In this document: positions 1,709 to 56,636 of the stretch, piece by piece
Layout of the letters: each line of letters begins with the position of its first letter
How positions within the stretch are numbered: position 1 is the stretch's first letter
Assembly (NCBI GenBank): GCA_030674155.1
Contig: CM060327.1
Span: forward strand, 23,311,874 to 23,375,873
Origin: Stramonita haemastoma
Lineage: Eukaryota; Mollusca; Gastropoda; Neogastropoda; Muricidae
DNA: 64,000 nucleotides
Direction: 5' to 3'
The notes under the pieces: model-generated
What the model was told of the DNA's origin: nothing
Seen by the model: the letters and a program-made list of their open reading frames with translations, nothing else
The model's database searches: none
Program-made: the position numbers and the translations under genes

Positions 1709-4519
1709 TCACAAGTCATCCTTTCGGCGTTCCCTCCACAGCCTCAGGGACCTGATCAGCAATGTCTGTGGTGCTTTCTTCCGGCACAGCAGGGGGACAC
1801 TGGGGTTGGGGGCGCTGGGCTCAGACACACTGTCCCCTCCTCCCTCAGACCCCACACTTTTTCGCAAGTCCAAATCTTTGGGGCGCAGATCTGTGTCTGT
1901 GCGCAGATCAGTGTCACTTCGCAGATCCATGTCCCCCCTAAGATCTGTGTCTTCGGCTTTGGAGTCCTTCTCCTCCTCCGGTGCTGTGGAGGAGTTGTTA
2001 CCACCGTGCTCCCCTGAAACCGAGCCCTTCTCTTCCTGCGGCTTCCTGTTGAAAGGCGCCCCCAACCTCTGGAAGGGGAGTTTCTGAATGGCTGACCCTT
2101 GCAAGAGTTCTGGACGAAGTCCTCGAAGGTTCATTGCACCAGGCCCGAATCGAAGTCCGGCAGGTAGAGGTATGGTGGGCCGAGGCCCTAAAAGTCCGGG
2201 CCGACCATCTGCCAAAGAAGCACGCAACATGAGATTCTGCAACGGGTTGGGTCCACTGTTGGGACCAGGCAGGGAGATGCCTGGAGACACATCCTCCAGA
2301 ATGTTCCTGCCGCCCTGACTGACAGGTAGATCTGCTAGCTGCAAGCGGGGATTGTCCAGACCAAAAGGCCCCCCAGGCCGCACTAGGTTAGGTCTCTGGC
2401 CCAGCACAATGCGAATCGGCGGCCTCATCCCCGGGCTGCCGGCTAGGCCCAGTCTCTGTCCCAAACTCAGGTTGGCGGGACTGAGACCTAAGGGACCTTG
2501 GGCGCCCATCCGAAGACGCATTCCCAAGGGACCTTGCGGCATAAATCCTTGTGGCAACTGCCCTGGGCGTATCATGGCCTCCATAGGCCGGATTAAGGTT
2601 TCCATAGGCCGGATCATGCCCTCCATTGGCCGAATCATGCCCTCCATAGGCCGAATCATGCCCTCCATTGGACGTATCATCCCTTCTGGAGGACGTATCA
2701 AATCTTCCATGGGGCGCATCATCCCTTCCCCAGGCCGCATCATTCCTTCATCAGGCCGCATCATCCCTTCCCCTTGCCGCATCATTCCATCTCCTGGAGT
2801 CATCCTTTCTTCCTCTGGTCGCATCATATTGCCGGGGGGTCTCATCATTCCTTCTGGAGGTCTCGACATGTCATCCATGGGCCTCATCATGCCACCCTCC
2901 CCAGGTCGCATCATTCCACCCTCCCCAGGACGTGGCATTTCTTCCCCTGGCCGCATCATTCCTGATCCCGGTCGCATCATTCCTTCGCCGGGAGGCATTC
3001 CATCTCCAGGACCCATCCCATCTCGTGGCATGCCATCTGGCCCTGATCGCATTCCATCTCCTAGTCGCATGCCTTCTCCTGGCCGCATATTGTCTCCTGG
3101 TTGCATATCGTCTCCCGGTCGCATATTGTCCCCTGGTCTCATATTGTCCCCTGGTCTCATATTGTCCCCTGGTCTCATATTGTCTCCCAATCGCATGTTG
3201 TCCCCTGGTCTCATATTGTCCCCTGGTCTCATATTGTCTCCCAATCGCATGTTGTCCCCTGGTCTCATATTGTCCCCTGGTCTCATATTGTCTCCCAATC
3301 GCATGTTGTCTCCTAGTCGCATGCCGTCTCCAGGATGCATACCTTCTCCTGGTCGCATATTGTCTCCCAGGCGCATGCCATCTCCAGGCCGCATATTGTC
3401 CCCTGGCCGCATGTTGTCTCCTGGCCGCATATTGTCTCCAGGCCGCATATTGTCCCCTGGCCGCATATTGTCCCCTGGCCGCATGTTGTCTCCCAGTCGC
3501 ATGCCATCTTGATGCATACCTTCAGGATGCATACCCTCTCCCATTCGCATGCCTTCTAGTCGCAATCCTGATGACCCTAATCGCACCCCTTCTTCTGGGC
3601 CCAGTCGAATCCCTTCCGGTCGCATTCCTTCTCCTGGACCAAACCGTAATCCTTCAAATCGGTTCATTCCTTCTCCAGGTCGCATTCCCTCCCCAGGTCG
3701 CATTCCTTCACCTGGTCGCGATCCATCTGGCTGCATTCTGTCCCCGCGCTGCATTCCTTCATCGGGCCGCATTCCTTCTCCGGGTCGGCCCATTCCTATC
3801 ATTCCATCTCCTGGACGCATCATTCCATCTCCCGGCCGCATCATTCCGTCTCCCGGCCGCATCCTTTCTTCCGGTGGTGGGCCCATCCCTTCAGGCGGGC
3901 GGATCATGGAATCAGGGGGCCGGCGCATTGCGTCTAGACCGTCGAGGGGCCTGGCAGGAGAAATGAGCCGAGGACCCGGCATGTTCGGTTGGTCTAGGGA
4001 CAGCCCCGGCGGCATGCCAGAGCCCGGCTGTCGGATCTCCACCATCATCCCTGGGCGAGGGCCACCTCCGGGCATCGGCAGGGGCATCCGAGGTCCTCCG
4101 GGGCCGGGCAGACCCATCCTTATCAACTGCAAGGGCATCACCTGGCCAGGGGGCATCCCAGGGAGGGCGGCGCGCTGGTCTATGTCATCGTCCTCCATCT
4201 CCGCCAGGGCCTCCTCCTCCAGCTTATCATCACTGGGCCACTCCTTGGGCTCCTCAGCCTGGAAAGGCATGCGCAGCCCTGCCGGCGGGTTCATGGGGGG
4301 CATCCCAGGACGCACGTTGGGCATGGGGAAGGGGGGGCCGGGCGGGAGCCCGGGGCGGAGGGCCATTCCCGGTGGCTGACCGGGCATCATGACACCCGGC
4401 GGGGTGCTTTCCATAGAAGGCATTCTGGGCACAGGAGGGTGGTTGTCCATGCCCAGGTTGGGGAGGGAAGAGTTGGGGAGGTGAGGGACACCCAGTAAGG
4501 AGGCCGCTGCCGACACCAT
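1709..4519 (-). CDS. SCAF exon 17: giant last exon, Met/Arg/Pro/Gly repeat tail and stop
   Basis: The acceptor gttgatgcag gives phase 0; 936 residues follow to TGA at 1711-1709. The first 230 residues are Pro/Met/Gly-rich with an acidic island ([16 protein letters not shown]). Then come about 400 residues of hexapeptide-like repeats: [12 protein letters not shown], a dense [12 protein letters not shown] array (about 3100-3500), then MMRPGEGM and MIRPMEG types. The end is QRLGLAG-type Leu/Gly/Pro sequence and a charged tail with DLRxDxDLR repeats. The 2.8-kb frame is intact, unlike three upstream exons. The Met codons further upstream (to 4546) belong to the intron. Function of the tail is unknown; low-complexity tails of RNA-binding proteins often drive condensation, which is inference only. 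Confidence 0.92.
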   Translation of the reverse strand: MVSAAASLLGVPHLPNSSLPNLGMDNHPPVPRMPSMESTPPGVMMPGQPPGMALRPGLPPGPPFPMPNVRPGMPPMNPPAGLRMPFQAEEPKEWPSDDKLEEEALAEMEDDDIDQRAALPGMPPGQVMPLQLIRMGLPGPGGPRMPLPMPGGGPRPGMMVEIRQPGSGMPPGLSLDQPNMPGPRLISPARPLDGLDAMRRPPDSMIRPPEGMGPPPEERMRPGDGMMRPGDGMMRPGDGMIGMGRPGEGMRPDEGMQRGDRMQPDGSRPGEGMRPGEGMRPGEGMNRFEGLRFGPGEGMRPEGIRLGPEEGVRLGSSGLRLEGMRMGEGMHPEGMHQDGMRLGDNMRPGDNMRPGDNMRPGDNMRPGDNMRPGDNMRPGDGMRLGDNMRPGEGMHPGDGMRLGDNMRLGDNMRPGDNMRPGDNMRLGDNMRPGDNMRPGDNMRLGDNMRPGDNMRPGDNMRPGDNMRPGDDMQPGDNMRPGEGMRLGDGMRSGPDGMPRDGMGPGDGMPPGEGMMRPGSGMMRPGEEMPRPGEGGMMRPGEGGMMRPMDDMSRPPEGMMRPPGNMMRPEEERMTPGDGMMRQGEGMMRPDEGMMRPGEGMMRPMEDLIRPPEGMIRPMEGMIRPMEGMIRPMEGMIRPMETLIRPMEAMIRPGQLPQGFMPQGPLGMRLRMGAQGPLGLSPANLSLGQRLGLAGSPGMRPPIRIVLGQRPNLVRPGGPFGLDNPRLQLADLPVSQGGRNILEDVSPGISLPGPNSGPNPLQNLMLRASLADGRPGLLGPRPTIPLPAGLRFGPGAMNLRGLRPELLQGSAIQKLPFQRLGAPFNRKPQEEKGSVSGEHGGNNSSTAPEEEKDSKAEDTDLRGDMDLRSDTDLRTDTDLRPKDLDLRKSVGSEGGGDSVSEPSAPNPSVPLLCRKKAPQTLLIRSLRLWRERRKDDL

Positions 4520-56636: not shown

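What the first reader, a model, noticed from the sequence alone, without database searches (positions are those of the whole stretch)
1709..56636. SCAF4/8-like gene and Cu/Zn SOD gene are neighbours, as SOD1 and SCAF4 are in human
The two host genes I can identify here are a SCAF4/8 homologue and a Cu/Zn SOD with intron-split exons. On human chromosome 21 SOD1 and SCAF4 lie next to each other, tail to tail. Here both are on the minus strand, SOD 3' end facing the SCAF 5' end across about 11 kb. If this is not chance it is microsynteny kept since the bilaterian ancestor with one local inversion.
Basis: partly seen in the sequence, partly recalled or inferred. Interest (0 to 1): 0.75.

Follow-up and report, generated by a model that had tools for sequence, protein, structure and literature searches.

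The report
Snail SOD gene beside SCAF4/8 gene
In a sea-snail genome an antioxidant-enzyme gene (Cu/Zn SOD) sits next to a gene for an RNA-processing factor (SCAF4/8), much as SOD1 and SCAF4 do in people; the two look like old chromosome companions, but this SOD is a divergent snail copy and unbroken side-by-side order since the bilaterian ancestor is not shown.

Summary
Observation confirmed. On the minus strand lies a SCAF4/8 gene (start codon 36326, open frame of the last recognised exon to 1709) and, 11,369 bp before it, the last three exons of a Cu/Zn SOD (56636-47696); SOD exons 1-2 were not found in the window. SCAF groups with Littorina and Nucella (100/99): the host is a caenogastropod snail. 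The SOD joins a divergent caenogastropod group (97/97) with three copies on one Nucella contig. Whether that group descends from SOD1 is unresolved: joining it to insect extracellular SODs fits slightly better than the free tree, and joining it to canonical molluscan SOD1 is not rejected. Against tight linkage: in 2 of 2 snails with smaller contigs, Nucella and Aplysia, they lie on different contigs.

The parts
56567..56636 (-). Cu/Zn SOD exon equivalent to SOD1 exon 3 ([24 protein letters not shown]), 70 bp, phase 1 in, phase 2 out
   Evidence: tblastn and splice sites; Sod_Cu on joined exons
54228..54345 (-). Cu/Zn SOD exon equivalent to SOD1 exon 4, 118 bp
47696..47821 (-). Cu/Zn SOD last exon with stop; C-terminus [17 protein letters not shown]
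36327..47695 (.). interval between SOD stop and SCAF start codon, 11,369 bp; simple repeats; no Pfam match above cut-off in 19 of 19 open frames of 90 aa or more that overlap it (shorter exons would be missed)
36297..36326 (-). SCAF4/8 exon 1, [10 protein letters not shown], donor GTATGT
   Evidence: 9 of 10 residues as in Littorina P0121
30891..31024 (-). SCAF4/8 CID exon 2 (apparent frame break inside)
29960..30127 (-). SCAF4/8 CID exon 3 (approximate, tblastn limits)
29098..29217 (-). SCAF4/8 CID exon 4 (approximate)
22755..28715 (-). SCAF4/8 middle exons, approximate matches at 28715-28527, 28031-27850, 26189-26091, 25861-25709, 25305-25174, 23657-23559, 22847-22755
17467..21675 (-). SCAF4/8 RRM exons (21675-21565, 20598-20482) and following exon (17642-17467)
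1709..14986 (-). SCAF4/8 proline/methionine-rich exons (open frames 14986-14618 and 4570-1709)
56642..57406 (.). 22-bp minisatellite ending just before SOD exon 3
55721..56540 (.). 88/30-bp minisatellite starting 26 bases after SOD exon 3

Best explanation
The window is from a caenogastropod snail. It carries the invertebrate counterpart of SCAF4 and SCAF8 and, upstream of it on the same strand, a Cu/Zn SOD of a divergent caenogastropod group that may descend from SOD1. The two are near each other because a SOD1-type gene and SCAF sat on one chromosome in the bilaterian ancestor and still do in snails, a crinoid and fishes; order and strand within that chromosome were reshuffled. Shown: both genes, their order and distance, and contigs of identical length in five other animals. 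Inferred: descent of this SOD from SOD1, inheritance of close linkage as opposed to a shared chromosome only, and absence of a function that holds the pair together.
For: Among species with a contig in both lists: 3 of 3 invertebrates with chromosome-sized contigs and 2 of 2 fishes with SCAF4 match; 0 of 4 fishes represented by SCAF8 do (Salminus, Silurus meridionalis, Erpetoichthys, Sinocyclocheilus anshuiensis), as expected of a duplicate elsewhere. SCAF tree: window with Littorina and Nucella 100/99. SOD exon lengths 70 and 118 bp and intron phases equal those of human SOD1 (human values recalled). P0241, P0243 and P0005 of the same SOD group begin at the SOD1 start, without an obvious signal peptide (by eye).
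Against: Nucella: SODs P0002, P0006, P0241 on a 1,089,957-bp contig, the listed SCAF (P0127) on a 914,029-bp one; a break within 11.4 kb has about 1.2% chance there. Aplysia: 796,856 against 1,416,789. SOD1 descent is unresolved: the tree with the group joined to insect extracellular SODs scores best, beetle SODs (P0003 75%, P0004 73%, P0026, deposited as extracellular, 73%) match the window as closely as Nucella P0002 (74%), and an earlier tree drew the window to Mytilus and Clytia rows (93/91). SOD exons 1-2 unseen. A misjoin cannot be excluded.
Confidence: 0.5

Rival explanations
1. Secondary approach: SOD and SCAF shared an ancestral chromosome but were far apart; duplication and local moves of the caenogastropod SOD group brought one copy next to SCAF, so the likeness to human adjacency is convergent.
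For: Three related SODs on one Nucella contig while the listed SCAF is on another; different scaffolds in Aplysia; divergent SOD group.
Against: Landing next to the very gene that neighbours SOD1 in vertebrates is unlikely even on one chromosome: about 0.1 to 0.6% for nine chromosomes and 1-6 SODs (worked by hand from the numbers).
Confidence: 0.32
2. Chance neighbours or an assembly misjoin; the SOD is an extracellular-type or other paralogue with no tie to SOD1's locus.
For: Best-scoring constrained tree joins the group to insect extracellular SODs; poor-looking stretches (77-G run; 59.6-63.4 kb) and frame breaks in SCAF exons; Nucella and Aplysia unlinked at contig level.
Against: Chance of adjacency about 0.0001-0.0006; SOD and SCAF on one contig in 3 of 3 invertebrates with chromosome-sized contigs.
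Confidence: 0.15
3. The pair is kept together by function (shared regulation or read-through) since the bilaterian ancestor.
For: Neighbours here and in most vertebrates analysed in PMC10604766 (passage).
Against: Orientation differs from human, 11 kb of repeat-rich DNA lie between, and two other snails have them on different contigs.
Confidence: 0.03

Closest known systems
Vertebrate SOD1 neighbourhood with TIAM1, SCAF4 and HUNK (human 21q22)
   Same: A Cu/Zn SOD next to a SCAF4/8 gene; TIAM1, SCAF4 and HUNK on either side of SOD1 in most vertebrates analysed in PMC10604766 (passage); SCAF4 called SOD1's neighbour in PMC8762977 (passages)
Nucella lapillus SODs (ACOMHN_016544, ACOMHN_016548, P0241)
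   Same: Same tree group at 97/97; ACOMHN_016544 74% identical with RLACC end
   Different: Three on one contig, with the listed SCAF on another
Canonical molluscan SOD1 (Patella, Gigantopelta, Aplysia)
   Same: Metal ligands of exons 3-5; same contig as SCAF in the first two
   Different: Window SOD lies outside them in the tree; window alone with canonical molluscs rejected (p-AU 0.008)
Insect extracellular-type SODs (Aromia, Anoplophora, Phaedon)
   Same: 73-75% identity over 89% for Aromia and Phaedon; constrained tree with the snail group scores best
   Different: Snail group members start without an obvious signal peptide; grouping not significant
Bilaterian ancestral linkage groups (recalled)
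   Same: Genes stay on one chromosome over very long time while order is shuffled
   Different: One gene pair tested here

Membership tests
SCAF4/SCAF8 | N-terminal CID | tested here: met
   PF04818 97.5 bits on joined exons
SCAF4/SCAF8 | central RRM | tested here: met
   PF00076 37.9 bits
SCAF4/SCAF8 | groups with SCAF4/8 of other animals | tested here: met
   100/99 with Littorina and Nucella in a 32-row tree
Cu/Zn SOD | Cu and Zn ligands of exons 3-5 (human H63, H71, H80, D83, H120), disulfide cysteines, active-site Arg | tested here: met
   alignment with zebrafish SOD P0022; residue numbers recalled
Cu/Zn SOD | Cu ligands H46 and H48 of exon 2 | tested here: inconclusive
   exon 2 not found in the window; it may lie beyond 64000
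SOD1 (cytosolic) orthologue | tree places it with canonical SOD1 | tested here: inconclusive
   separate caenogastropod group 97/97; with canonical molluscs 28.3 log units worse, p-AU 0.12; with insect extracellular SODs 3.7 better, p-AU 0.57
SOD1 (cytosolic) orthologue | no signal peptide | not testable with these tools
   N-terminus not in window; P0241, P0243, P0005 show none by eye
Conserved SOD1-SCAF synteny | same chromosome in other bilaterians | tested here: met
   3 of 3 invertebrates with chromosome-sized contigs and 2 of 2 SCAF4 fishes in both lists
Conserved SOD1-SCAF synteny | adjacent in other molluscs | tested here: inconclusive
   0 of 2 (Nucella, Aplysia) on one contig; positions in Patella and Gigantopelta not available

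The most novel reading that the evidence does not exclude
SOD1 and SCAF4/8 are a bilaterian gene pair that stayed within tens of kilobases from snails to humans with one inversion, surviving the change of the snail SOD into a fast-evolving form.
Probability: 0.28. Interest if true: 0.5.

Novelty: new member of a known kind. Interest (0 to 1): 0.35.

Why it matters
SOD1 is a major ALS gene and a variant in its neighbour SCAF4 has been proposed to act on it (PMC8762977, passages). If the linkage predates bilaterians, the neighbourhood is old and comparative data can test whether it matters. A shared chromosome over such time is the known norm for ancestral linkage groups (recalled), so the surprise is moderate.

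Tried and rejected
The genome behind the window could not be searched: the genome search (own, PF00080) did not complete in 12 of 12 calls. So the number of SODs in this genome, the missing SOD exons and the wider neighbourhood stay unknown.

Those aimed at SOD1-SCAF linkage were 6 (1 paper, salmon), 15 (10 papers, listing), 16 (none), 29 (1 paper, cattle and human; its held text of 9,704 characters shows neither gene) and 64 (29 papers, 8 listed; the one with SCAF8, SOD1 and invertebrates, PMC12386676, speaks of mouse models in the passages seen). None listed reports the linkage outside vertebrates by title and abstract start. Biomphalaria papers (passages): SOD1 is linked to cat, prx4 and biomphalysin; SCAF4 and 'serine-rich' do not occur in the main text of PMC10875847, PMC9463173 and PMC12297450. 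SOD1 is on LG6, 53.6 Mb; the Biomphalaria SCAF hit is on a contig of 54,851,608: compatible, but LG4 and LG5 have like sizes and the assemblies may differ, so not counted.

That the RLACC end marks an extracellular SOD: not settled. P0002 and P0241 have it without an obvious signal peptide; Mytilus P0013, P0015 and P0040, with a hydrophobic N-terminus, end in a like RLGCC; P0243 and P0005 keep CGVIG.

Rfam: no match at gathering score; tRNA: none. Open frames between the genes: 19 of 19 of 90 aa or more scanned, no Pfam match above cut-off (DUF3915 and Piezo_TM1-24 below it). Second SOD tree: 8 of 45 rows dropped, six as long or joined-long branches (Strongylus, Clytia, Prorops, Diorhabda, two Mytilus), and Xenopus and Sycon without a flagged reason; its bootstrap had not settled.

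Full report
What is there. The window is animal DNA rich in simple repeats. Two host genes are recognisable, both on the minus strand. SCAF4/8: exon 1 starts at 36326 ([10 protein letters not shown], donor GTATGT), CID exons at 31024-29098, middle exons to 22755, RRM exons at 21675-20482, one more at 17642-17467, and proline/methionine-rich frames at 14986-14618 and 4570-1709. Pfam finds CID and RRM_1 above cut-off on joined exons. SOD: exons at 56636-56567, 54345-54228 and 47821-47696 with canonical splice sites, Sod_Cu at 116.2 bits. The three SOD intron positions that can be placed match human SOD1 in position and phase, and the two inner exons have the human lengths, 70 and 118 bp (human values recalled). 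SOD stop and SCAF start codon are 11,369 bp apart. Nineteen of 19 open frames of 90 aa or more that overlap this interval gave no Pfam match above cut-off; shorter exons would escape this.

What is missing. A profile of SOD exons 1-2 from 22 SODs gave nothing better than E 1 in six frames, while the profile of exons 3-5 found just the three exons with E of 1.7e-8 or better (next best 11). tblastn with ten SODs agrees. The first two exons lie beyond 64000 or are lost, and no second SOD was found in the window.

Which animal. In a 32-row SCAF tree the window joins Littorina and Nucella (100/99), within a six-row group with Batillaria and two unnamed rows (100/100); vertebrate SCAF4 and SCAF8 split from each other among vertebrates. 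So the gene is a pre-duplication counterpart of both, and the host is a caenogastropod.

Which SOD. By E-value the first hit is a two-domain nematode protein (Strongylus P0001, 64%), then Nucella ACOMHN_016544 (P0002, 74%), then beetle SODs (P0003 75%, P0004 73%). P0006 and P0241 lie on the same 1,089,957-bp Nucella contig as P0002. In a 37-row tree the window joins these three, Babylonia P0243 and unnamed P0005 at 97/97, apart from canonical SOD1 of Patella, Gigantopelta, Aplysia and others (bootstrap not fully settled). Holding the group with canonical molluscan SOD1 is 28.3 log units worse but not rejected (p-AU 0.12); holding it with three insect extracellular-type SODs is 3.7 log units better than the free tree (p-AU 0.57); the window with those insects but without its snail kin is not rejected either (p-AU 0.33); the window alone with canonical molluscs is rejected (p-AU 0.008). 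An earlier 45-row tree drew the window to long Mytilus and Clytia rows at 93/91 inside a nine-row group with the snails at 90/92. P0241, P0243 and P0005 start like SOD1 without an obvious signal peptide (by eye). Descent from SOD1 is possible but not settled.

Test of linkage. The protein search gives the length of the longest contig that carries each hit. I compared SOD hits (120 listed of 1554; 120 of 7942) with SCAF hits (120 of 1059) by hand. Invertebrates with a contig on both sides: five. In 3 of 3 with chromosome-sized contigs (Patella, Gigantopelta, Antedon) the lengths are identical to the base; in 0 of 2 with smaller contigs (Nucella, Aplysia) they are. Patella's 94,032,750 fits chromosome 2 of nine (PMC10663661, passages); Gigantopelta has 15 chromosomes (PMC7895826, passages); that Antedon's 30.6 Mb is a chromosome is my reading of its length. 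Controls: 2 of 2 fishes with SCAF4 match (Anguilla rostrata, Brachyhypopomus), 0 of 4 fishes represented by SCAF8 do. If independent, chance of 3 of 3 is about 0.0007 (with a recalled 11 chromosomes for Antedon); as one inherited fact it is nearer one in ten to twenty. Nucella's assembly has 2,525 contigs in 2.32 Gb (PMC12506669, passages), so a break within 11.4 kb would have about 1.2% chance. Nucella could still have another SOD near SCAF. The Patella, Gigantopelta and Antedon SODs so linked are canonical ones in the tree.

How it most likely came about. A SOD1-type gene and SCAF shared a chromosome in the bilaterian ancestor. Rearrangement inside chromosomes changed order and strand. In this snail a fast-evolving SOD sits beside SCAF. 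Either closeness was inherited or it was regained by local moves of a multiplying SOD group; I cannot decide between these. Nothing found suggests that function holds the pair together.

Known or new. SOD1 near SCAF4 is known in vertebrates (PMC10604766, passage; PMC8762977, passages). Five searches of the paper library listed no report of SOD-SCAF linkage outside vertebrates; only 8 of 29 papers were listed, and most subscription papers are not held. Old gene linkage is a known kind.

Noticed in passing
55721-56540 and 56642-57406: SOD exon 3 is squeezed between two minisatellites; the 22-bp array runs to within a few bases of the splice acceptor, so the 3' splice site sits at the edge of repeat DNA.
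   Followed up: partly
3057-3502 and 2571-2827 within 4570-1709 (-): The last recognised SCAF exon has about 25 copies of an 18-bp unit (R-x-G-D-x-M) and further 21-bp units, a long methionine-rich repeat in the C-terminal part.
   Followed up: no
492-568 and about 59600-63400: A run of 77 G and a long homopolymer-rich stretch look like poor assembly.
   Followed up: no
about 30.96, 27.9 and 17.55 kb (-): Apparent frame breaks in conserved SCAF exons, probably assembly errors.
   Followed up: partly
41658-41933 (-), 38346-38840 (-), 53564-53881 (-): Fragments resembling reverse transcriptase or its tail by eye; no retrotransposon Pfam hit.
   Followed up: partly
P0002, P0006, P0241 (Nucella lapillus): Three related Cu/Zn SODs on one 1.09-Mb contig: a clustered caenogastropod SOD group.
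   Followed up: partly
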